Positions 1,552 through 24,399 of a DNA stretch of 27,883 bases are shown piece by piece. Origin of the DNA: a virus; IMG/VR virus record IMGVR_UViG_3300005548_000029, positions 1 to 27,883 of that record; one strand, 5' to 3'. Made by a program: the position numbers and the translations under genes. Every line of letters begins with the position of its first letter. Within the stretch, counting starts at the first letter, position 1. The notes under the pieces were generated by a model. It made no database searches, had not been told where the DNA came from, and was given only the letters and a program-made list of their open reading frames with translations.

Positions 1552-1591
1552 AGGATTTCGGCCAGACTCCAGCCCGGAGGAAGGCCGGAAA

Positions 1592-1645
1592 CGGAGGGGC
1601 GCTTAGAGGGAAGACGAGGCGCTCCTCCGGTCGCGAAAATTTTCG
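1592..1645. promoter_or_regulatory. Stem-loop plus 12-bp palindrome upstream of the ATPase gene
   Basis: Bases 1592-1602 pair with 1619-1629 as an 11-bp stem with one G-U pair and a 16-base loop. They are followed by the perfect palindrome CGAAAATTTTCG at 1634-1645, just before the ribosome binding site AAGGGA of the ATPase gene. It could be an attenuator or terminator for the genes upstream, or an operator. No convincing -35/-10 pair is visible. Only the symmetry is certain. Confidence 0.4.
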
Positions 1646-1658
1646 GTCGGAAGGGACA

Positions 1659-3470
1659 ATGAAAATTCCCATCGGCAAATCAGGCCCGACGACGATTTCG
1701 CTGGACGTCGACAAGCTGCTTAGCACGCGGCTGCTCGTTCAGGCGAACAGTGGCAAAGGCAAGAGCCATCTTCTACGCCGCATCGCCGAGCAGCTCTTCG
1801 GAAAAGTACCCGTCATTATCGTCGACCCAGAAGGCGAATTCGCGACGCTGCGCGAGAAGTTCGGTTACGTCCTAGTTGGAAAGGGAGGCGAGACGCCAGC
1901 GGATCCGCGATCGGCCGGCCTGGTTGCCCACAAGTTGCTAGAGCTGCGCGCCTCGGCGGTCTGCGATATTTACGAGCTAAAGCCAGCGACACGTCACCTC
2001 TGGGTTAAATCATTTCTCGACGCGATGATCGACGCGCCGAAAAATCTCTGGCATCCCTGCGTTGTCATTGTCGATGAGGCTCACGTTTTCTGTCCGGAAA
2101 AGGGAAGCGGAGAATCTGAAGCATCAGAAGCCATGATTGGCCTCGCGACACGCGGCCGAAAGCGAGGCTTCGCTAGTATCTTCGCGACCCAACGGCTCGG
2201 CAAACTCCGCAAGGACGCAGCCGCCGAACTCCTAAACATCGTGGTCGGAGGCACTTTCATCGATGTCGATCGTAAGCGCGCCGCCGACGCCCTGGGCGTC
2301 TATGGGACAGACCTGCACAAGTTCTTCGATGAAATAAAAGTCATGGAGCCTGGCTACTTCTTTGCGCTGGGCCCAGCGATCTCAGTTGATCGTGTCCTAG
2401 TCCACGTCGGCGAAGTGGCGACAACACATCCTAAGGCAGGCAGCGCGAAGCACGGAGACGAGCCGCCGCCAGCTCCGGAGGCGATTGCCAAGCTGCTTCC
2501 GAAGCTGGCGGACTTGCCGAAGGCCGCAGAAGAGAAAGCCAGGACCGAAGCCGACCTGCGCCGTGAAATTCGCGACTTGAAAAACCAGATGCGCACAGCG
2601 CCAGGTAAATCTGTCGACGTCAAAGTCGCCGACCCGAAAGCAATTGACCGCGCTGTTCGTCCGCTAAAGGCGATGTTGGAGGAAGCAATGAAGGTAATCG
2701 TCAAGGTCAACGCGATCGGATTCGACCAGGCGGGAATGAAGCCGGAGGAAGTAGCGAAGGCTTTCGAGGCGACCGCCAGGGAAATCTCCCGCATATCGAA
2801 GGCCGGTTTGGAAAAGCGAGCCGCCGAATTTGACCGTCTGAAGAGAGAGGCGAATCTTGTTCTATCTCGCCTGAAGAGTCTTCTTGAAAAAGAGGATGTT
2901 GCCGTAACGGTCGACGTCCGTCATAACCAGCCGTTCACGGTCTCGCCCGCCAGCGCCGCACCGCGCAAGCCTGTCGAATCCAATGGAGACCTGTCCCGAC
3001 CGCAAATGAAAATCCTTGCGGCGTTGGCCGAATTTCAGGCGATAGGCGTCAATGAACCAAATCGTTCGATGGTCGCCTCCTGGTGCGGAGTCAAGGCCGG
3101 AACCGGTTCGTTTAAGAATTATTTGAGCGAACTGCGCGTGCGCGGGTACATCGCGGACGGTCGCGATGAACGCCTATCGCTGACTCCGGAGGGAGAACGG
3201 CACGCGCCGGAGGTTGCCTCCGTGATGTCGACGGAAGAATTGCTCCAGCGCTCCGCCTCTATTTTCGGGGCCACGCCAGCGAAGATACTTCGCCTAATTC
3301 ATGCCGAACACCCGAACTTTGTCGAACGGGAGAAGCTCGGCAACGCTCTCGGCATCTCCTCAGAGACGGGAAGCTTCAAGAATTACATTTCGGAGCTCAG
3401 GACAGCGGGAATGATCGAGGACGGTCCAGACCGCAGCCTCAAGGCTGCAGACTGGCTCTTTATCGGATAG
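1659..3470 (+). CDS. HerA/FtsK-type ATPase with tandem C-terminal winged helices
   Basis: This encodes 603 aa from ATG 1659, with AAGGGA seven bases upstream; the frame is open further back but without a start in good context. Walker A is ANSGKGKS (residues 29-36) and Walker B is VVIVDEAH (135-142), followed by an ATRGRKRGF segment and a FATQRL sensor-like motif. This is the pattern of DUF87/HerA-like hexameric DNA-pumping ATPases. A charged coiled-coil region follows (about 280-430). Two winged-helix repeats end the protein (about 445-515 and 540-603), each with a GSFKNY(L/I)SELR helix near residues 483 and 571. It probably translocates or remodels phage DNA, with the C-terminus binding DNA. 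A nuclease gene starts four bases downstream, suggesting a functional pair. Confidence 0.85.
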   Translation: MKIPIGKSGPTTISLDVDKLLSTRLLVQANSGKGKSHLLRRIAEQLFGKVPVIIVDPEGEFATLREKFGYVLVGKGGETPADPRSAGLVAHKLLELRASAVCDIYELKPATRHLWVKSFLDAMIDAPKNLWHPCVVIVDEAHVFCPEKGSGESEASEAMIGLATRGRKRGFASIFATQRLGKLRKDAAAELLNIVVGGTFIDVDRKRAADALGVYGTDLHKFFDEIKVMEPGYFFALGPAISVDRVLVHVGEVATTHPKAGSAKHGDEPPPAPEAIAKLLPKLADLPKAAEEKARTEADLRREIRDLKNQMRTAPGKSVDVKVADPKAIDRAVRPLKAMLEEAMKVIVKVNAIGFDQAGMKPEEVAKAFEATAREISRISKAGLEKRAAEFDRLKREANLVLSRLKSLLEKEDVAVTVDVRHNQPFTVSPASAAPRKPVESNGDLSRPQMKILAALAEFQAIGVNEPNRSMVASWCGVKAGTGSFKNYLSELRVRGYIADGRDERLSLTPEGERHAPEVASVMSTEELLQRSASIFGATPAKILRLIHAEHPNFVEREKLGNALGISSETGSFKNYISELRTAGMIEDGPDRSLKAADWLFIG

Positions 3471-7601: not shown

Positions 7602-7888
7602 TGATGCCGCAGGTCAAGCGCTTCGCGCTTTCGACCTCGGAATGGACCCCGATCGTTACGCCTATCGCTTGCAACTATTTCGCTATTTTGGGTAGCTCAG
7701 ACGGGGCCGCGATGAGCCGCTGCTCAACTCCTAGCAGCGAACAGAGCTGGAGCGATTGGTATGACCTTCAAGATTACGCGCTGGTCGTTCCGCGCATGGG
7801 AGAGCGCAGGTTCGAACCAGGCGACACCGTGACATATCTCAAGGGAAAGACCCCGGGCCAATCAGCAATTGTGGAATTCATCTTGTGA
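7601..7888 (+). CDS. Small virion-like beta protein
   Basis: This encodes 95 aa from ATG 7601 in a TGATG overlap; ATG 7604 is equally possible. The sequence is beta-rich, with the segments SEWTPIVTPIACNYFAIL, a middle SRCSTPSSEQSW and GERRFEPGDTVTYLKGKTPG, followed by a hydrophobic end. Small proteins of this pattern occur next to structural genes in phages. Its role (decoration, fibre or tip component) cannot be fixed. It leads into two secreted-looking proteins. Confidence 0.6.
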   Translation: MMPQVKRFALSTSEWTPIVTPIACNYFAILGSSDGAAMSRCSTPSSEQSWSDWYDLQDYALVVPRMGERRFEPGDTVTYLKGKTPGQSAIVEFIL

Positions 7889-7895
7889 GGAACCG

Positions 7896-8492
7896 ATGAA
7901 AATCAATTTCCGGGCCATGGCAGCGGTTCTCCTGACCGCCGCCGCGATGATCTTCATACTGCAAACGCCGTCGAGCGGGCAGCTGCAGTCTTCCGGCGGG
8001 ACTGGCAACATTACCTCGATCGGCGGCAGTGCCGTTTCGCTCGGGGCGAAGACTAGCGCAAATTCGTTTCCTGTTGTCATCGCCTCTGATCAGGGCGCGC
8101 TTCCGGCAAGCCAGAGCGGAACCTGGAACGTCACCGTCAATCAGCCTTTGCCCGCAGGCACGAACCTACTCGGCAGCGTCTATTCGGTTCCGAAGACGGC
8201 CTGCGGAAATACAGTCGCAAGCCAGGCTCTCGCCGCCGTTCCGACGAGCTCGACCGCCGTGTTCGCTTCGACGACTTGCGTGGTGACTGTCGTCCTGAAC
8301 AATACGACCTCGGGCGCGCTGACGGTGAGCGTCAGCGACGGCCAAGGTTCTCCTGTGAGCGACGTAGTCACCTTCTCGATTCCCGCAAATTCGCAGATGA
8401 TCCAGCCGCTTTACGGCGTGCAATTCACCAGCGGAGTCAAGTGGTCGGCTTCTGGTTCCGGCGTAACGGGGGCGGTCCTTGGCTACCAGTGA
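7896..8492 (+). CDS. Signal-peptide protein with phage fibre-like repeat motif
   Basis: This encodes 198 aa from ATG 7896, with TGAGGAACC upstream. Residues 1-29 look like a Sec signal peptide (basic start, hydrophobic core AAVLLTAAAMIFIL, then TPSSGQ). After it comes SFPVVIASDQGALPASQSG, a motif widespread in phage structural proteins, then a Ser/Thr-rich beta-sandwich-like domain with two cysteines. A Sec signal on a virion-like protein is unusual: either the protein is exported to the host envelope or surface during infection, or the hydrophobic segment anchors it. It overlaps the next gene by 14 bases. Confidence 0.7.
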   Translation: MKINFRAMAAVLLTAAAMIFILQTPSSGQLQSSGGTGNITSIGGSAVSLGAKTSANSFPVVIASDQGALPASQSGTWNVTVNQPLPAGTNLLGSVYSVPKTACGNTVASQALAAVPTSSTAVFASTTCVVTVVLNNTTSGALTVSVSDGQGSPVSDVVTFSIPANSQMIQPLYGVQFTSGVKWSASGSGVTGAVLGYQ

Positions 8493-8976
8493 AAGGAAGC
8501 GTCGCGGGCTCTTTATTTTTGGCGTTATCGCCATCCTGCTCGCTCCCTGGTGTTTCGGCGACCATGGGGCCCGCGCTCAATCGAATTATTCCGGGCCGCC
8601 TTCAGTCACGATTTCGACATCCGGCTCCAATCCCTGCCAGAATCCGAACGCAAACCTTCAAGCGGTCCTGGCCAGCACGTCGGGAACTTCCGCGACGCAG
8701 ATCATCGCGCTCAGCGCTTCCACAAAGATTTACGTTTGTTCGATCGTGGTCGTCGGCGTCAGTGGAACTTCGCCGACCTTTTCGCTGGTATATGGGACCG
8801 GTTCGAACTGCGCGACGGGGCAGGCGACCTTTCTCGGGGCCTGGACGACGTCGGCTAACACCGTTTACCCATTCCCGTTTCCTGTCGGAATCACGCCGGC
8901 CGGCCAGGCGCTCTGCTATCTCAACGGAGGGACTTCGCCGGTCCAGCGGATAACGCTGACCTACGTTCAGCTCTGA
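8479..8976 (+). CDS. Second signal-peptide, Cys-containing beta protein
   Basis: This encodes 165 aa from TTG 8479, the only suitable start before the signal sequence, with a G-rich site (8468-8473) upstream. A basic segment (SERKRRG) precedes a hydrophobic core (LFIFGVIAILLAPWCF) and an ARAQ cleavage-like site near residue 34. The mature part has the pattern TKIYVCSIVVVGV ... GTGSNCATG ... FPVGITPAGQALCYLN, a cysteine-rich beta protein known from phage genomes. The cysteines suit disulphide formation outside the cytoplasm. The terminase gene starts in its stop codon (TGATG), so it is co-expressed with packaging genes. Confidence 0.7.
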   Translation: MATSERKRRGLFIFGVIAILLAPWCFGDHGARAQSNYSGPPSVTISTSGSNPCQNPNANLQAVLASTSGTSATQIIALSASTKIYVCSIVVVGVSGTSPTFSLVYGTGSNCATGQATFLGAWTTSANTVYPFPFPVGITPAGQALCYLNGGTSPVQRITLTYVQL

Positions 8977-12866: not shown

Positions 12867-13771
12867 AATACGAGCACATCGTCGCCGAGGTTTTTCGCCG
12901 GCCATGGGCCATTCTTCCGGAAAAGCTTAAGGCGATCGTCGGTTTCATCGCGTTCGCAGCCGCTGGCGGAAGACTAAGCAAGGAACAGGTCGAAGCGATT
13001 CAGGCCGGGCCGCGCCCGCGCGCGAACACTCCCGGAACGGTCGCTCTGATTCCTGTTTTCGGCGTCATCGCGCATCGCATGAGCGCCTTTTCCGAGATCA
13101 GCGGGCCCGGCGGGACCTCGATCCAAAAGCTGACGGAGACGTTTCGGAAAGCGATGGAGGACCCGGGCGTCAAGGCTATCGTTTTCGAGATCGATTCACC
13201 TGGCGGAACGGTCGACGGCGTTCCCGAGCTCGCGCAGGAAATCTACGACGGCCGCAGTAAAAAGAAAATCGTCGCGCATGTAAATACCATGGCGGCAAGC
13301 GCCGCTTACTGGCTCGCGGCATCGGCCGATGAAATCGTCGTTACACCCTCCGGCGAAGTCGGTTCGATCGGCGTGTTCGCCGCGCATGAAGACTTCTCGA
13401 AGGCACTCGAACAAGAGGGAATCAAGGTCTCGCTCGTCAGCGCCGGCAAATATAAGACCGAAAATAATCCTTATGAACCGCTGAGCGAAGAGGGCCGCGC
13501 CTCCATCCAGGCCGCCGTCGACGCCTTTTACGGCATGTTCATCAAAGCGGTCGCGAAAGGCCGCGGCTCGACGCCTGCAGTCGTGCGCGAGGGATTCGGA
13601 CAGGGCCGCATGGTCTTGGCTCAAGACGCGATCACCGCAGGCATGGCTGACAAAATCGCGACTCTCGACGAGACTCTCGCCCGCTTTGGAGTGGGAACGG
13701 CTTCCAGCGCCAAACCGATGAGTTCGAAAAGCATGGACATGCTGAGCCGCGAGCTCGCGCTTTACGAATAA
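12863..13771 (+). CDS. Prohead protease, S49 (SppA/ClpP-like) family
   Basis: This encodes 302 aa from ATG 12863, overlapping the portal stop; an in-frame ATG at 12752 lies inside the portal gene. The S49 pattern is clear: VFEIDSPGG oxyanion segment, NTMAASAAYWLA with nucleophile S146, SIGVFAAHEDF, and SAGKYKTENNP with general base K198 (52 residues after the serine, as in SppA). It probably matures the capsid protein and removes its scaffold segment. Its position between portal and capsid genes is typical. Confidence 0.92.
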   Translation: MKYEHIVAEVFRRPWAILPEKLKAIVGFIAFAAAGGRLSKEQVEAIQAGPRPRANTPGTVALIPVFGVIAHRMSAFSEISGPGGTSIQKLTETFRKAMEDPGVKAIVFEIDSPGGTVDGVPELAQEIYDGRSKKKIVAHVNTMAASAAYWLAASADEIVVTPSGEVGSIGVFAAHEDFSKALEQEGIKVSLVSAGKYKTENNPYEPLSEEGRASIQAAVDAFYGMFIKAVAKGRGSTPAVVREGFGQGRMVLAQDAITAGMADKIATLDETLARFGVGTASSAKPMSSKSMDMLSRELALYE

Positions 13772-13838
13772 ATTTCCCGCCGACCCCTGGACGCCGTCGC
13801 GATCCGGAGGAAGGCGAAACGCAGTAGCCGCCGGCAAG

Positions 13839-13854
13839 CCGATCCGTCGATCGG
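13839..13854. promoter_or_regulatory. Stem-loop in the protease-capsid spacer
   Basis: CCGATC (13839-13844) pairs with GATCGG (13849-13854) around a CGTC loop, within a 130-base gap before the capsid gene. GATCCGGAGGA occurs on both sides (13801 and about 13854) as a direct repeat. It is followed by AT-rich sequence and AAAGGA before the capsid ATG. It may be an RNA-processing or transcript-control element. No promoter is convincing. Confidence 0.35.
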
Positions 13855-13901
13855 ATCCGGAGGACGGGTCACTCACGATAAATTTTCGAAAGGACAGACA
13901 C

Positions 13902-15206
13902 ATGAACATCAAAGCCTTGCGGCAACGCAAAGCCGAAATGGCAAAGAAAATTCGCGCGCTGCTCGACGCGGCTCACAAAGAAGGCCGCGAATTTAACGAG
14001 ACAGAGCGGGGCCAGTATGAGGAACAGATGAAGGCCCTCGCTTCGGTCGACGAGCAGATCAAGCGCGAGGAAGCGCTGATGGACATCGAACGCGGCATGC
14101 CCGCAGCGGATGATCCGAATACGGCCGCTTCCATCGCCGCCGGCGCTCCGGGCAAGGACGGCGGGTTCAAATCATTCGGCGAATTCCTGGTCTCTGTAGC
14201 GACCGCCGGTCGTAGCAGCGGAACGAAGATCGACCCGCGGCTCATCCAAGCGGCTGCTTCGGGCCTCTCCGAAGCGGTTCCGCAGGACGGCGGCTTCCTG
14301 GTCCGCAAGGACTTCTCGGAAGAGCTGATCCAGAAGGTCTACGAGTCGGGCCAGATCGTTTCCCGCACGCGGAAGATCCCCATCGGCGGCAATTCGAACG
14401 GCGTGAAGATCAACGCCGTCGACGAATCGAGCCGCGTCGACGGGTCGCGGTGGGGCGGCGTTCAGGCCTATTGGGTCAATGAAGCCGACGCCTTCACCGG
14501 TTCGAAGCCGAAGTTCCGCCAGATCGAATTGAACGTCCAGAAGCTCATCGGTCTTTGCTATGCGACCGACGAACTGCTCGCGGACGCCTCGGCGCTCGAA
14601 GCGGTCGTTATGCAGGCGTTCCCCGAGGAGTTCACCTTCAAGGTCGAAGACGCGATCTTCAACGGGACCGGCGCCGGCCAGCCTTTGGGCTTGCTGAATA
14701 GTCCATCGCTGATTACTCAGGCGAAGGACTCCGGCGATTCGACCGCGACGATCTCGACGAACGACGTGCTGAACATGTGGAAGCGCCTCTGGGCGCGCAG
14801 CCGGCAGAACGCCGCCTGGTTCATTAACCAGGACGTCGAGTCCGCGCTCTATCCCCTGACCCTCGGCTCCGGGACCGCCGTTCAGCTGCTCTACACGCCG
14901 CCCGGAATCAACGGCAATAACAATCAATACGGCCTGCTTTTGGGGCGGCCGGTCATCGCGACTGAGCACAATGCGACGCTCGGGACGCCTGGCGACATCA
15001 TCCTCGCCGACATGACGCAGTACCTGATGGCCGACAAGGGCGCTCCGCAGTCTGCCTCGTCAATTCACGTTCGCTTCCTGAACGATGAAATGACGTTCCG
15101 CTTCACCTATCGCTGCGACGGCCAGCCGGCTTGGAATAAGCCTCTGACGCCGAAGAACGGCTCGAATACGGTTTCGCCGTTCGTCAATCTCGCGACCCGT
15201 CCGTAA
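13902..15206 (+). CDS. Major capsid protein, HK97 fold
   Basis: This encodes 434 aa from ATG 13902, with AAAGGA upstream. Residues 1-65 form a charged coiled coil (the delta or scaffold domain), then a linker; the HK97 fold begins near GLSEAVPQDGGFLVRKDFSEEL and includes LIGLCYATDELLADASALEA, VEDAIFNGTGAGQPLGLL and a C-terminal FRFTYRCDGQP strand. It builds the icosahedral head. The upstream S49 protease is expected to cleave off the N-terminal domain. A strong stem-loop directly follows the stop. Confidence 0.95.
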   Translation: MNIKALRQRKAEMAKKIRALLDAAHKEGREFNETERGQYEEQMKALASVDEQIKREEALMDIERGMPAADDPNTAASIAAGAPGKDGGFKSFGEFLVSVATAGRSSGTKIDPRLIQAAASGLSEAVPQDGGFLVRKDFSEELIQKVYESGQIVSRTRKIPIGGNSNGVKINAVDESSRVDGSRWGGVQAYWVNEADAFTGSKPKFRQIELNVQKLIGLCYATDELLADASALEAVVMQAFPEEFTFKVEDAIFNGTGAGQPLGLLNSPSLITQAKDSGDSTATISTNDVLNMWKRLWARSRQNAAWFINQDVESALYPLTLGSGTAVQLLYTPPGINGNNNQYGLLLGRPVIATEHNATLGTPGDIILADMTQYLMADKGAPQSASSIHVRFLNDEMTFRFTYRCDGQPAWNKPLTPKNGSNTVSPFVNLATRP

Positions 15207-15219
15207 TTGAACCCGCTTC

Positions 15220-15249
15220 CGGAGGGGGCGAATCGCTCCCTCCGCTTTC
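15220..15249 (+). terminator. Stem-loop after the capsid gene
   Basis: Bases 15220-15230 pair with 15234-15244 over 11 positions (one G-U) around an AAT loop, followed by the weak T-run CTTT. It is too poor in T to be a full terminator; more likely it attenuates transcription or protects the 3' end of capsid mRNA. Confidence 0.55.
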
Positions 15250-15273
15250 GAATTCTCGAGGAGGAAAAGGAAA

Positions 15274-15750
15274 ATGAGAGGCTTTATCGCAGCAGTAGGC
15301 GGTCACATTGTGAACATCCTTCCGCCGATCGATATCACCGGCGGAAAGAACGCGCAAGCGTTCTCGCTGAAAAAGCATCATCACGCGAGCATCTTCGTTC
15401 AGATCGGCGTGTCGGCCGCGGCCTTCACGAAGATCCTGCTCAATGCTTGCACCGATGCGAGCGGCAGCAACCCGACCGCTCTCCCATTCACCATTTACAA
15501 ACAGGAAACCGCCGGCGCGAATCAGGACGTCCTGAGCGCGAAGACGGCCGTGACCTCCGCCGGTTACACCCCGTCGGCCAATGACAATATTTTCTATGTC
15601 ATCGAAATCGACGCGAGCGAACTGCCGGACGGTTCACCTTATCTGCAGCTGCAACTGACGAACGGCTCGAACAGCGTTATCGCCAGCGCGGTTGCGGTCC
15701 TTTCCGGGTCGCGGTACGCCGAGGAATCGAGCGCGACCGCAGCGGCTTAG
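15274..15750 (+). CDS. Putative capsid decoration or head-associated protein
   Basis: This encodes 158 aa from ATG 15274, with a very strong GAGGAGGAAAAGG site. It is beta-rich and includes HHHASIFVQIGVSAAAFTKI and a C-terminal IASAVAVLSGSRYAEESS segment, a pattern seen in small proteins that follow the capsid gene in HK97-like phages. A role as a decoration protein on the head surface is inferred from position, the strong ribosome binding site and the terminator that follows. No enzymatic motif is visible. Confidence 0.65.
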   Translation: MRGFIAAVGGHIVNILPPIDITGGKNAQAFSLKKHHHASIFVQIGVSAAAFTKILLNACTDASGSNPTALPFTIYKQETAGANQDVLSAKTAVTSAGYTPSANDNIFYVIEIDASELPDGSPYLQLQLTNGSNSVIASAVAVLSGSRYAEESSATAAA

Positions 15751-15774
15751 TCACCGAGGCCAGCCCGGCAACGC

Positions 15775-15811
15775 GAAGGCGGTCAGCACACCCCCTGGCC
15801 GCCTTCATTTT
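15775..15811 (+). terminator. Rho-independent terminator after the decoration-type gene
   Basis: GAAGGCGGTCAG (15775-15786) pairs with CTGGCCGCCTTC (15795-15806), a 12-bp stem with one G-U pair and an 8-base loop, followed by ATTTT. This is the clearest terminator with a long stem in the window. Downstream head-tail genes must be reached by read-through or a separate promoter. Confidence 0.8.
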
Positions 15812-15840
15812 GAGAAAGGGGAAGAAAGAGAGGCAAGAAA

Positions 15841-16092
15841 ATGAAGATCCGACTGCTCGAAAACGTGACGCACGCCGGCCTGAACGGTTGCAAGGGCCAG
15901 GTGTTGGAGCTGGACGACGCCACGGCGATCGACCTGGAGAAGCACGGACACGCCGAATTTGTCGGCGAAGATGCGGACGAAATGAATACTCGAGTACGCG
16001 CGAAAGCCGACGACACAGGCGCGGCGCCCTCGTCTGACGGTGAATCCGGAGACGAAGACACTCGCACGACTCCGAAAAAGAAAAAGAAATAA
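15841..16092 (+). CDS. Small phage protein with charged low-complexity tail
   Basis: This encodes 83 aa from ATG 15841, with GAGAGG upstream. Residues 1-45 form a small beta domain (KIRLLENVTHAGLNGCKGQ, then LDDATAIDLEKHGHAEFV), a type common in phage head modules. The tail is acidic and Ser/Thr-rich and ends in five lysines. It resembles the N-terminal half of the next gene product, so the two may be paralogues. Function unknown; a head-tail joining accessory is possible from position. Confidence 0.65.
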   Translation: MKIRLLENVTHAGLNGCKGQVLELDDATAIDLEKHGHAEFVGEDADEMNTRVRAKADDTGAAPSSDGESGDEDTRTTPKKKKK

Positions 16093-19938: not shown

Positions 19939-20469
19939 GTGGCTCCTACAGCTCTAAAAAAGCGCACTGCGAAGACATACCCCCTGGTGCTCGACCTCGA
20001 GGACGGCGACGCGAAGTTCACGCGAAGCTTCCTGCTGCTCCTCGATTTCAACGCGCTTGCCGCAGCAGAAGAAAAGGCCGGGACGCGGATGATCGGAATC
20101 GCGTTTTGGACGAGGATGTCGGCGAGGATGCTGACGGCGCTGCTCTGGGCTGCGGCTCTCAGGTATCAGCCGGAATATGCGACGGTCGACAAAGACGGAA
20201 ATCCGACCGATGACGGCTTCGAGGTCATCGGGTCGTATATCGACCCGGGCAATGAGTCGGCAGTCGCCGAGGCGCTCTGGGAGGCATACCTAGTCAATAT
20301 GCCGCAGGACCGGCAAACGCTTTTGCGTAAACTGCGCGCCGGCGAGGAGAAACCTGACCCAAACGGGCAGGAGCCGGCGGAGCCGCCGGCGTCGAACCAA
20401 CCTGGCTCGACCTCTGGTCCGTCGCCAGATACGACCTCGGTCTCAGCGATAGCGAGTTCGGCGAGCTGA
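19939..20469 (+). CDS. Tail assembly chaperone, short form (gpG-like)
   Basis: This encodes 176 aa from GTG 19939, with CGGAGG upstream. The first 130 residues are helical (FLLLLDFNALAAAEEKAGTR, then a second helical region). The last 35 residues, past the frameshift site, are low-complexity Pro/Ser/Thr, as expected of the part that overlaps the alternative frame. Like lambda gpG it should coat the tape measure before tube polymerisation. Position between tail tube and tape measure is diagnostic. Confidence 0.85.
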   Translation: MAPTALKKRTAKTYPLVLDLEDGDAKFTRSFLLLLDFNALAAAEEKAGTRMIGIAFWTRMSARMLTALLWAAALRYQPEYATVDKDGNPTDDGFEVIGSYIDPGNESAVAEALWEAYLVNMPQDRQTLLRKLRAGEEKPDPNGQEPAEPPASNQPGSTSGPSPDTTSVSAIASSAS

Positions 20470-20720
20470 CTTGGGCTGAATATGAGGCTCTCCTCGAGCG
20501 GCGCACGGAAGAACGCAACCGCGCGCAACTGAATGCGGGGATCGTCGCTTCGGCAATCGGAAACGCCTTCCGCGGCAAAGATCAGCCGGCATTCGATGCG
20601 ACCGACTTTGTCCCTGACTATCGCAGAAAACTTCAGGCAGAACGGGACAAGGAAAGACTTAATTCGCAAATCGAGGAAGTCTCGCGTGCTCTCGGCTGCG
20701 GGCCGGGAAGGGTTAATTAG
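19939..20720 (+). CDS. Tail assembly chaperone, frameshifted long form (gpGT-like)
   Basis: A -1 shift at 20358-20364 joins frame 19939-20364 to the frame 20364-20720, giving about 260 aa. The second frame has no start codon of its own in good context but is clearly coding: W-L-D-L-WSVARYDLGLSD, LTWAEYEALLERRTEERNR, a central AGIVASAIGNAFRGKDQP and a C-terminal helix ending GPGRVN. It is closed upstream by TGA at 20355-20357, so the shift must occur after that, exactly where the heptamer lies. In lambda, gpGT recruits tail tube subunits to the tape measure through the T part. Only a small fraction of ribosomes is expected to shift. Confidence 0.85.
20358..20390 (+). promoter_or_regulatory. 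-1 programmed ribosomal frameshift signal
   Basis: The canonical heptamer C CCA AAC occupies 20358-20364 in the zero frame of the chaperone gene. Eight bases later GCCGGCG (20373-20379) pairs with CGCCGGC (20384-20390), a 7-bp GC hairpin with a GAGC loop, at the spacing expected of a stimulatory structure. A stop in the -1 frame sits immediately before the heptamer. Confidence 0.85.
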
Positions 20721-21228
20721 ACGCCGCGGTGAATGCTTGATCGCTGCAGGAGTTCGGTATCACGGACGAACGGGAGCGCAATGAATCCTCCAGGGCGTCG
20801 AAGCAGCTGGCCTCCTGGGCCTTCATCCGAAGGACCTTCTCGTCCTTCGACATTGCCTCATCCACCTTCATATTTTTGATGAGCTCGTTCGATTCGCGAA
20901 TCGAAATTACATAATTCGTCTCGATAAAATCGCGCGACGAATTGTGAAGCAACAGCGCGGTGTAGATTCGATTGAGAGCCGCAGTGACGTTTTTCTCACT
21001 TTTGGTCGTCGCTTCGGCGTCCGCAGTATTGATTGCTTCGATGGTATGCCTATTCGCCAAGGCTTCGCCGTTTTCATATTTCGGCAAAGAACGATCCGCC
21101 CGGATGGTTTTCGCCGCCAACAGCGCGGCTTTCGCGTATGAATCGCCTAGTTTTTCGTTGTCTTTCTTGTGCTGAGGAACGGTCGCTAGGACGAGCGCAC
21201 CAATGATAAGGGCCTTCATGGTCGTCAC
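20713..21228 (-). CDS. Reverse-strand moron: exported protein of unknown function
   Basis: This encodes 171 aa on the minus strand, from ATG 21228 with GGGAAGG eight bases upstream (second ATG at 21219 also possible). The N-terminus MTTMKALIIGALVLATVPQ is a signal peptide or short membrane anchor; the rest is polar and helical with a coiled-coil-like central part and two cysteines near the C-terminus. It is the only reverse gene here, inserted between the chaperone and tape measure genes, with its 3' end overlapping the gpGT stop by eight bases. Hand-counted GC of 20821-21180 is about 49 %, against about 62 % in a portal sample. These are hallmarks of a moron; superinfection exclusion or a lysogenic-conversion role is inference. 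Confidence 0.75.
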   Translation of the reverse strand: MTTMKALIIGALVLATVPQHKKDNEKLGDSYAKAALLAAKTIRADRSLPKYENGEALANRHTIEAINTADAEATTKSEKNVTAALNRIYTALLLHNSSRDFIETNYVISIRESNELIKNMKVDEAMSKDEKVLRMKAQEASCFDALEDSLRSRSSVIPNSCSDQAFTAASN

Positions 21229-21254
21229 CTTCCCGCCTGATTCTAAGGAACATT

Positions 21255-21284
21255 ACGCTACTTCGAGATTGTCTCTGGAGTCAA
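21255..21284 (-). promoter_or_regulatory. Candidate promoter of the reverse-strand moron
   Basis: On the minus strand TTGACT (21284-21279) and TAGCGT (21260-21255) are 18 bases apart, about 30 bases upstream of the moron start. The -35 matches consensus at five of six positions and the -10 at three. The -35 region overlaps the GGAG ribosome binding site of the tape measure gene on the other strand. Confidence 0.4.
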
Positions 21285-21288
21285 TAGA

Positions 21289-24200
21289 ATGAACGTTTTG
21301 GGAAGCCTGTTCGTTCAGCTAAAGGCAAATACCGCCGACTTCGTCGACGGGATGTCCCGAGCATCCTACTCCGCGAAGCGGACCTCGCGCGACATCGAGG
21401 ATTCATTTAGCCGACTTGGTTCGCTTGCCGGATCCTTGCTCGCGCCATTCGGCGAGACCGGGCAGCTCCTCGGCGAAAGCTTGTCGCGCGTCGGAGAGTG
21501 GGGAGCCAAAGCCGCCGAGGGAATCGGAAAAATGTCTGGAGGGCTCAGTTTCCTGACCATCGGCGCCGGCACTGGCGCGGCGGCGATCGCGGCCCTCGAC
21601 GCTGCGTCTATCGGCCTTGCCATTCATGCCACAGAAGGGGCGGCGAAGCTGTTTATCCTTTCCCAAACGACTGGCGTCTCCGTTGAGGCGCTGTCGGGCC
21701 TTTCTTTTGCCGCGAAAATGACCGGCGTCGACCAGGAGACGCTCGCGAAAGGTCTGGAAAAACTTGATAAGTCGATGCTGAAGAATGCCACGTCGGCGCC
21801 TGGGACAGTCGACGCCTTCACCCGGCTTGGCGTGGCGGTGCGCGGAACTGACGGTCAGATTCGGTCGACAGAGGACGTATTCGCGGATCTGGCTGAGAAG
21901 TTTTCACAAATGCAGAACGGCGCAGTAAAGACCGGACTCGCGATTGAGATTTTCGGCCGCGGCGGTGCCGCGATGGTTCCGCTCCTGAATGAAGGGAAGC
22001 AGGGGATCGAAGAGTTTCTCGACACCGCACGAGCCTTAGGCTTAATCCTCGATACAGACACTGCCGCCGCCGCCGAGCATTTCCGCGACAATCTCGAAAC
22101 GATCGAGGAAGCCGGCCATGGAATTTCTCTAAGATTCATGAAAGACCTCCTGCCAGCGCTGGAGACAGTCACGCACGAGCTCGTCGAAGGCCTGAAGGAT
22201 TCACACTCCGCAATCAACGCTTTCGTCGACGATATGGCGTGGATGGCAAAAGCCTCGATCGCCGTCGCTGGAACTGTCACTACAGCCTTCCGCTCGATCA
22301 AAGCTGCCGGCGCCGGTGTAGTGGCAGACTTAAAAGCAGATAAAGAGTTTTTTGCAACGCTCTCCGCATTCGGGTTAGGCGAAGCCAGTTGGGACGACGT
22401 TAAGAAGGCCTACCACAACGTCGTCGAGACAGAGAAAAAAGACTCGAAGGACTTCAGCGAGTACAACAAAAAACTCTGGAAGGACAACGCGGACTTCATC
22501 GAAAACATGATGGGGCCTCGAGCGCCATGGACGCTTAGTCATCGCGGCGACCGTGGAAACATGGGCGACGTCGATACCAAGCCGGCGAGGCAGGACACTG
22601 TCCTGGAACGCATTAGAGAGCGAATCAACGCGCTTGCTCTAGAGCGCGAGGGATGGCTGAAAATTGGGCAGGCCGGCAGCCAAGCCGCGCAGCTCATCGC
22701 CGAGGCGTCAAAAAAAGGCGACGAAGAATTCGGAAAATTGAGGGCGGAAGCCGCCAAGAGCAAGACTCCAGAAGCACTCAAACTCGTCGACGCAAATGAG
22801 GGCGCGATTAAGGCTGCCGGCGCGGCCGCGACGTTCGGCGGCGCAATCAAAGGAATAATCGGCGATTTAGACAAACAGGGCCGAAAGTTCGACGAGGAGG
22901 CGGCAGCCTCTGACAAGCTCGCCCAGGCTTATAGAAACGGAGGCGTAGCTTCGGCGGTGCTCGACGGCATGCTCGCCGAGCAATCTGCCAAAGTCTTAGT
23001 GCTGAAACAGGCCCATGACCAATTGGCTGAGCAATTAGGTGAAGAGAGCCCGCAGGTCAAGCAACTAGCGGACGGGTTGGCTCTCGCAAACGAGGAACTA
23101 GAAGAGAACAAAAAAAAGCTGAGCGCAGCATTGAGTTCCAAACTGTCTACCGAACTCGATAAAGAAACAGCTTCTTATGCGGCTCTGCGACCATTCGTAG
23201 CAGCTATAGCTGACGCGCACCTCCAGAGCGCTGCGGCGGTTCGCGCCGAAACTGTAGCAATGCAACTGCAGGCGTTCATACGAGACGGGAACGATAAAGG
23301 CGTCGCGTTGTCTAGCGAATTGATCGAGCGGCAGCGGCAGCTTCTTCAGGCTAAATCCGACGATGCTTATCGCGACGCGACGATCGAGGAAGCCTCGCGT
23401 TACGACCTAATCACAAGTTACGCGAAGGAAATCGAGAGAATCGGAGACCTGCGGGCGGTTCTTCTGGAAAACCATCAGTCGACGATGCTTCTCGATGCGG
23501 AGGAGTATGACTTCCAGGCTCGAATGATTCAGCAATGGGACCAGGCCGCAATGAAGGTCGGGAGCCTCGGCGACAAATTCCGGGCCACGATGAACGAAGT
23601 CGCGCTGCAGGGCCGCAATTTCAGCGGCAAGGTTTTCGAAGCTTTCGGCAAGGCGATCGACGATGTCTCGACGCAGCTCGCGAAACTGGTGGTGACCGGA
23701 AAGGCCAATTTCAGGGAACTCTTCCAAGGCCTCGAGGAGTCGATTGTAAAAGCTGGCTTCCAAACCATGATCGGAAAGGCCGCCGGCTTCATCAATAACA
23801 AGTTCTTCGGCGGGGCGATTCCAGGCCTGGGCCAAAAAGCCGACGGTTCCCAGGCCTCACCCTTCTATGTGGTTCCCGTCGACGCGTCCGGAAACATCTT
23901 CGGGAGTATGGGCGGAGGCGGACTCTGGGGCGGGTCGGCCACGAAGGATAATGGCGGGATCTGGGACGAAAGCATCCCTGGGCTCGGCGGAAGCGACCAG
24001 GACGGCGGCGGCGGCGGAATGTTCGGCGGACTTTTCGGGAAGATCGGAAGCATCTTTTCCTCCGCGTTTAGCGGCATTTTCAGTTTCTTCGGGAAAATCG
24101 CCTCCGGAATCGGCGGCGCCTTCAGCTCGATCTTTAGTTTCTTCGGAGGCTTCCTCGCAAACGGCGGCGATGTAACTCCTGGCCGGGCTTACATCGTAGG

Positions 24201-24399
24201 GGAAAAGCATCCGGAGTTTTTTGTCCCACGCCAGGCCGGCCAGGTTGCGCCGGCGCTGCAAATGGGCAGCTCGCAACAGTATTCCTATCAGTTTCACTTC
24301 CATGGCGTTCAGGACTTCGACAGTTTCAAAAAGTCCAAAGGCCAAATGATGGCCGATTTCCAGCGTCAACTTTCGCTCGCACATGGAAGGAATCGATGA
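21289..24399 (+). CDS. Tail tape measure protein
   Basis: This encodes 1036 aa from ATG 21289, with TGGAG upstream. Features in order: N-terminal VQLKANTADFVDGMSRASYS domain, a hydrophobic segment near residues 85-115, long helical coiled coils (about 430-790), the lambda-type block STQLAKLVVTGKANFRELFQ near 800-830, a Gly/Phe-rich hydrophobic stretch (about 905-965) likely to enter the host membrane, and LANGGDVTPGRAYIVGEKHP near the end. By the usual 0.15 nm per residue the tail would be about 150 nm. It sets tail length and may help DNA passage. Confidence 0.93.
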   Translation: MNVLGSLFVQLKANTADFVDGMSRASYSAKRTSRDIEDSFSRLGSLAGSLLAPFGETGQLLGESLSRVGEWGAKAAEGIGKMSGGLSFLTIGAGTGAAAIAALDAASIGLAIHATEGAAKLFILSQTTGVSVEALSGLSFAAKMTGVDQETLAKGLEKLDKSMLKNATSAPGTVDAFTRLGVAVRGTDGQIRSTEDVFADLAEKFSQMQNGAVKTGLAIEIFGRGGAAMVPLLNEGKQGIEEFLDTARALGLILDTDTAAAAEHFRDNLETIEEAGHGISLRFMKDLLPALETVTHELVEGLKDSHSAINAFVDDMAWMAKASIAVAGTVTTAFRSIKAAGAGVVADLKADKEFFATLSAFGLGEASWDDVKKAYHNVVETEKKDSKDFSEYNKKLWKDNADFIENMMGPRAPWTLSHRGDRGNMGDVDTKPARQDTVLERIRERINALALEREGWLKIGQAGSQAAQLIAEASKKGDEEFGKLRAEAAKSKTPEALKLVDANEGAIKAAGAAATFGGAIKGIIGDLDKQGRKFDEEAAASDKLAQAYRNGGVASAVLDGMLAEQSAKVLVLKQAHDQLAEQLGEESPQVKQLADGLALANEELEENKKKLSAALSSKLSTELDKETASYAALRPFVAAIADAHLQSAAAVRAETVAMQLQAFIRDGNDKGVALSSELIERQRQLLQAKSDDAYRDATIEEASRYDLITSYAKEIERIGDLRAVLLENHQSTMLLDAEEYDFQARMIQQWDQAAMKVGSLGDKFRATMNEVALQGRNFSGKVFEAFGKAIDDVSTQLAKLVVTGKANFRELFQGLEESIVKAGFQTMIGKAAGFINNKFFGGAIPGLGQKADGSQASPFYVVPVDASGNIFGSMGGGGLWGGSATKDNGGIWDESIPGLGGSDQDGGGGGMFGGLFGKIGSIFSSAFSGIFSFFGKIASGIGGAFSSIFSFFGGFLANGGDVTPGRAYIVGEKHPEFFVPRQAGQVAPALQMGSSQQYSYQFHFHGVQDFDSFKKSKGQMMADFQRQLSLAHGRNR

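What the first reader, a model, noticed from the sequence alone, without database searches (positions are those of the whole stretch)
20713..21228. Low-GC reverse-strand exported moron inside the tail operon
A single minus-strand gene with a signal peptide, its own ribosome binding site and a candidate promoter interrupts the otherwise forward chaperone-tape measure junction, where almost no phage carries an insertion. Its GC (about 49 % by hand count over 20821-21180) is well below its neighbours. An exported product expressed against the late operon fits superinfection exclusion, receptor masking or lysogenic conversion, and I recognise no known family.
Basis: partly seen in the sequence, partly recalled or inferred. 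Interest (0 to 1): 0.8.

Follow-up and report, generated by a model that had tools for sequence, protein, structure and literature searches.

The report
Exported reverse-strand moron in Acidobacteriota-type phages
A soil phage, probably infecting Acidobacteriota, carries one backwards gene between its tail genes; it belongs to an undescribed family of small exported proteins found on phages, a prophage and a conjugative element, and it most likely protects or alters the cell that carries the phage.

Summary
Window 20713-21219 on the minus strand encodes a 168-aa protein, with ATG as the better start than GTG 21228. It lies between a frameshifted tail chaperone (G/GT, ending 20720) and the tape measure (start 21289). 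GC is 52%, against about 59% for its neighbours.

Database searches with the single sequence find no family, but a survey of chaperone/tape-measure junctions gave homologues. A second phage has the gene at the same place and strand. A third has it about 8 kb away, again against the late operon. An Acidobacteriota-sample prophage, a conjugative element (two copies) and chromosomal loci carry others. All have a hydrophobic N-terminus; the nine aligned share two invariant C-terminal cysteines. Two phage copies show dN/dS 0.13, and all three phage copies share TTGACT-N18-YAGMGT upstream.

So it is a real, mobile, probably exported moron with its own promoter. Exclusion at the envelope is the leading guess, untested. 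This is a new protein family of a known kind (compare lambda bor, HK97 gp15).

The parts
20713..21219 (-). moron gene, 168 aa, ATG start 21219-21217, stop 20715-20713 (alternative GTG start 21228)
   Evidence: coding-like frame; dN/dS 0.13 between two homologues
21175..21213 (-). hydrophobic N-terminal segment (residues 3-15), probable short signal peptide
   Evidence: clear signal peptides in homologues L211, L219, L221, L222; lipobox (LTGC) in L220
20803..20805 (-). codon of Cys139, invariant in 9 of 9 homologues
20746..20748 (-). codon of Cys158, invariant in 9 of 9 homologues; predicted disulfide partner (inferred)
21226..21234 (-). Shine-Dalgarno-like GGGAAGGTG upstream of the ATG
21255..21284 (-). 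promoter-like element TTGACT-N18-TAGCGT (-35 at 21279-21284, -10 at 21255-21260)
   Evidence: same two boxes and spacing in the three phage members; no other of the 212 loci held had it
19939..20469 (+). tail assembly chaperone G
   Evidence: (phrog_2115 tail, E 0.002), synteny in relatives
20358..20364 (+). -1 slippery heptamer CCCAAAC
20365..20720 (+). T extension of the chaperone (-1 frame); its stop overlaps the moron's stop tail to tail
21289..24399 (+). tail tape measure protein, 1036 aa

Best explanation
It is a moron: a self-contained gene with its own promoter and ribosome-binding site, inserted antisense to the late operon of a tailed phage that probably infects Acidobacteriota. It is expected to be expressed from the prophage and shut down by opposing late transcription in the lytic cycle. 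The product is sent to the periplasm, where it should form an alpha-helical bundle, probably locked by a C-terminal disulfide. Most likely it acts at the cell envelope to exclude competing elements, for example by blocking DNA entry through their tape-measure conduit, as HK97 gp15 and TP-J34 Ltp do. Shown here: the gene is real, accessory, present in two genomic positions and on other mobile elements, with a hydrophobic N-terminus, an invariant cysteine pair and a shared upstream element. Inferred: export, the disulfide, timing of expression, and exclusion. Probabilities: moron about 0.95; exported about 0.85; exclusion as the function about 0.4.
For: Real gene: coding statistics and dN/dS 0.13 between two phage homologues. 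Accessory and in two places: of 73 distinct chaperone/tape-measure junctions, 53 have at most 60 nt; a homologue sits at the same junction in L134 (37% identity); in G003 the junction is closed (2 nt) and the homologue lies about 8 kb beyond the tape-measure gene, again antisense to the late operon. Mobile elements: a prophage with integrase, prohead protease and terminase (G077), and a conjugative element with TrwC relaxase, TrwB-type coupling protein and a secretion ATPase carrying two copies (G608). Envelope: hydrophobic N-termini in all, lipobox in G608, invariant Cys pair; helical core with pLDDT near 90. Own promoter: shared TTGACT-N18-YAGMGT. Site: HK97 gp15, a superinfection-exclusion moron, occupies the same junction. 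Most other non-structural inserts there also encode hydrophobic or exported products. Exclusion proteins of long-tailed phages act on tape-measure-dependent injection (PMC10883804). A sister phage has an integrase.
Against: No homologue has a known function. Chromosomal homologues (G261, G544) sit next to transporter genes with no phage nearby, so the ancestral role may be a host envelope function. The G003 copy is not next to the tape measure, so linkage to it is not required. The phage signal peptides are short and borderline. No tyrosine integrase was found in the available 36.6 kb of this virus. No fold match is above background.
Confidence: 0.45

Rival explanations
1. Lysogenic conversion without exclusion: a captured host envelope protein that changes stress tolerance, nutrient uptake or surface properties of the lysogen (as lambda bor does for serum resistance).
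For: Chromosomal exported homologues exist in genomes of the Acidobacteriota sample, two of them in the same context next to MacB/HlyD-like transporter genes. Lambda bor is a reverse-strand outer membrane moron.
Against: The family is rare (6 of 298 genomes of one order), several members are on mobile elements, and the site is shared with an exclusion moron. None of this is decisive.
Confidence: 0.35
2. A late-expressed accessory protein acting in the lytic cycle (lysis timing, envelope remodelling, or a minor virion part).
For: It lies inside the late region. Other genes in these phages that start with signal-peptide-like segments are in the late operon.
Against: It runs against the operon, has its own promoter-like element, is absent from most relatives, and has homologues on a conjugative element and on chromosomes.
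Confidence: 0.12
3. Entry-exclusion or competition factor of mobile elements in general, directed mainly at conjugation and carried by phages as a passenger.
For: Two copies on one conjugative contig; lipobox in one of them.
Against: Only one conjugative element was seen; three phages carry it.
Confidence: 0.06
4. Spurious ORF or antisense of an unrecognised plus-strand gene.
For: GC-rich DNA opens antisense frames.
Against: No plus-strand frame is open; the codon signal is only in this frame; homologues in other positions; dN/dS 0.13.
Confidence: 0.02

Closest known systems
HK97 gp15 (superinfection-exclusion moron)
   Same: Inserted at exactly the junction between the frameshifted tail chaperone and the tape measure; small envelope-directed product.
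   Different: HK97 gp15 is on the plus strand, about 62 aa and predicted to be an inner-membrane protein (PMC10883804); here the gene is on the minus strand, 168 aa, probably periplasmic, with a Cys pair. No sequence relation was found.
Lambda bor
   Same: Reverse-strand exported moron within the late region.
   Different: Located after the lysis genes; outer membrane protein; different family.
TP-J34 Ltp and other exported exclusion proteins
   Same: Exported; mechanism via the tape measure is documented for Ltp (PMC10883804, and references therein).
   Different: Ltp is a lipoprotein of a Gram-positive host; no sequence match, and its fold was not seen among the matches here.
Tab of JBD26
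   Same: Prophage-expressed moron that targets the tape measure (PMC10884400).
   Different: 83 aa, encoded between the terminase genes; blocks assembly of tails inside the cell.

Membership tests
Phage moron | extra gene between two genes that are adjacent in relatives | tested here: met
   53 of 73 distinct related junctions have at most 60 nt between chaperone T and tape measure
Phage moron | own promoter (and often terminator) | tested here: inconclusive
   conserved TTGACT-N18-YAGMGT upstream; no terminator-like site next to the gene; no transcript data
Phage moron | divergent base composition | tested here: met
   52% against 55-62%
Phage moron | expressed from the prophage | not testable with these tools
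   needs RNA-seq of a lysogen
HK97 gp15 family | sequence homology | tested here: not met
   tblastn of the protein against 50,697 phage records, HK97 included, gives no match even at E 1
HK97 gp15-like superinfection exclusion | blocks DNA injection of related phages | not testable with these tools
   needs a challenge assay
Known protein or defence families (Pfam, PHROGs, NCBIfam, PADLOC) | match over cut-off | tested here: not met
Family defined here (exported helical Cys-pair proteins) | N-terminal hydrophobic segment, K/R-L/I-S/G-D/E motif, two C-terminal cysteines | tested here: met

The most novel reading that the evidence does not exclude
An undescribed family of exported exclusion proteins shared by phages and conjugative elements of Acidobacteriota, one of several unrelated envelope proteins that collect immediately upstream of tape-measure genes because exclusion specificity co-evolves with the tape measure.
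Probability: 0.25. Interest if true: 0.65.

Novelty: new member of a known kind. Interest (0 to 1): 0.42.

Why it matters
It gives a defined, testable set of exported morons for a bacterial phylum whose phages are almost unstudied. It also shows that the chaperone/tape-measure interval recurrently receives genes for envelope proteins, in line with tape-measure-directed exclusion.

Tried and rejected
Single-sequence searches gave nothing: Pfam, PHROGs, NCBIfam, PDB sequences, phages, plasmids, and a GTDB pattern scan. TIGR03915 (E 0.03) and Autophagy protein 5 (E 1.2) are noise.

The AlphaFold model from one sequence was poor (pLDDT 52). The three-sequence model is better (pLDDT 69), but Foldseek gives no match under E 0.5, and the VIA-align Z of about 7 is within background for helical bundles.

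L038's reverse gene is not a detectable homologue (blastp none); it has only a sub-threshold DUF7018 match.

Control groups: 0 of 199 genomes in the phylum sampled around a Planctomycetota genome; 1 of 200 in the phylum sampled around an Acetobacteraceae genome, a 54-position fragment with a stop inside, taken as chance.

Searching the viral collection with the tape measure alone returned only the same virus.

Full report
Check of the observation. The minus-strand ORF exists at the stated place. The ATG at 21219 is the likelier start, because the GTG at 21228 lies within the only Shine-Dalgarno-like stretch. GC over 20821-21180 is 49.2%; the gene is 52% and its structural neighbours 55-62%. 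A complete ORF this long appeared in 26 of 5000 Markov simulations of the interval, and the codon signal is coding-like only in this frame. Upstream is a tail chaperone with a classical -1 frameshift (CCCAAAC at 20358; T product ends at 20720), and downstream is the tape measure. The window is an IMG/VR record of 27,883 bases; every stretch compared is identical to IMGVR_UViG_3300028379_000013, a 36.6-kb record of the same virus.

Relatives and the junction. Database searches with the single protein found nothing but the identical virus. I therefore collected relatives by capsid and by the frameshifted T domain, and read their chaperone/tape-measure junctions. Of 73 distinct junctions 53 are closed (at most 60 nt). 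Ten of the 20 open ones hold a forward gp10-like tail gene, three of them (L129, L183, L204) together with another gene. Four junctions hold a reverse-strand gene: the window, L134, L038, and L129 (next to the tape measure, after the gp10-like gene). All four genes begin with a hydrophobic, export-type segment. Forward inserts in L183, L204, L029 and L158 also encode products with hydrophobic N-termini or transmembrane segments. HK97 itself carries gp15, annotated as a moron, at this junction.

The family. L134 carries a 37% identical protein at the same junction and strand. Profile searches added L206/G003, where the chaperone/tape-measure junction is closed and the gene lies between two tail-fibre-like genes, again against the late operon. 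Searches of genomes around an Acidobacteria MAG added five members and one weaker one (L222, E 8.4e-4). G077's lies in a prophage with integrase, prohead protease and terminase. G608's lies on a conjugative element with relaxase, coupling protein and secretion ATPase, which also holds a second, more distant copy (profile E 6.8e-8). G261 and G544 carry chromosomal copies next to transporter genes. Within the order searched 6 of 298 genomes match, several of them used to build the profile; control groups gave 0 of 199 and one spurious fragment in 200. Six columns are invariant in the nine-member alignment, including both C-terminal cysteines. The L134/L206 pair has dN/dS 0.13, which is strong evidence that the protein is made and selected.

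Expression. All three phage copies have TTGACT, 18 nt, then YAGMGT, 21-35 nt before the start codon. No other of the 212 loci held at that point had the pattern. The chance that all three 110-nt upstream stretches hold TTGACT is about 6e-5. The pattern was read off these same sequences, so this is suggestive, not proof. In the window the -35 box shares two bases with the tape measure's Shine-Dalgarno; in L134 it lies too far from the tape-measure start codon to serve as one, so the box is not merely that signal. Opposing late transcription would be expected to silence the gene in the lytic cycle (inference).

Product. The N-terminus is hydrophobic in all members; signal peptides are clear in the chromosomal ones, and a lipobox occurs in G608. 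The three-sequence AlphaFold model is helical with a confident core and no meaningful fold match. Function is inferred. The combination of envelope location, presence on phages and a conjugative element, and the site shared with HK97 gp15 favours exclusion of incoming DNA, a role documented for membrane proteins of long-tailed phages acting through the tape measure (PMC10883804; compare Tab, PMC10884400). The rival, lysogenic conversion by a captured host envelope protein, is nearly as likely because of the chromosomal homologues.

Host. The nearest capsid in genomes is from an Acidobacteria MAG (60%), and the moron's homologues come from genomes sampled around that MAG. Acidobacteriota is therefore the likely host, but this is not proven.

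Noticed in passing
L038:14621-15118 (-) and L129:1573-1989 (-): Two further reverse-strand genes with hydrophobic export-type N-termini directly upstream of tape-measure genes, not detectably related in sequence to this one (L038: weak DUF7018).
   Followed up: partly
L029:12743-12826, L158:5567-5653, L204:5921-6181, L183:5668-6555: Small transmembrane or exported forward ORFs in the same chaperone/tape-measure interval: a possible hotspot for envelope proteins.
   Followed up: partly
window 7869-8492 and 8479-8976; L215:11836-13056, 13706-15307, 15310-16026; L216:16685-17374: Late genes of these phages, some of them tail-fibre-like, begin with signal-peptide-like segments, which is unusual for virion proteins.
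   Followed up: no
L227:465-15144: Conjugative element (TrwC relaxase, TrwB-type coupling protein, secretion ATPase) with two members of the family about 3.4 kb apart.
   Followed up: partly
window 20358-20364: Slippery heptamer CCCAAAC for the chaperone -1 frameshift.
   Followed up: yes
window 21277-21284: The -35 box of the moron and the Shine-Dalgarno of the tape measure overlap by two bases on opposite strands.
   Followed up: partly
window 1581-3470: HerA/DUF87-type ATPase near the start of the window, upstream of the structural genes.
   Followed up: no
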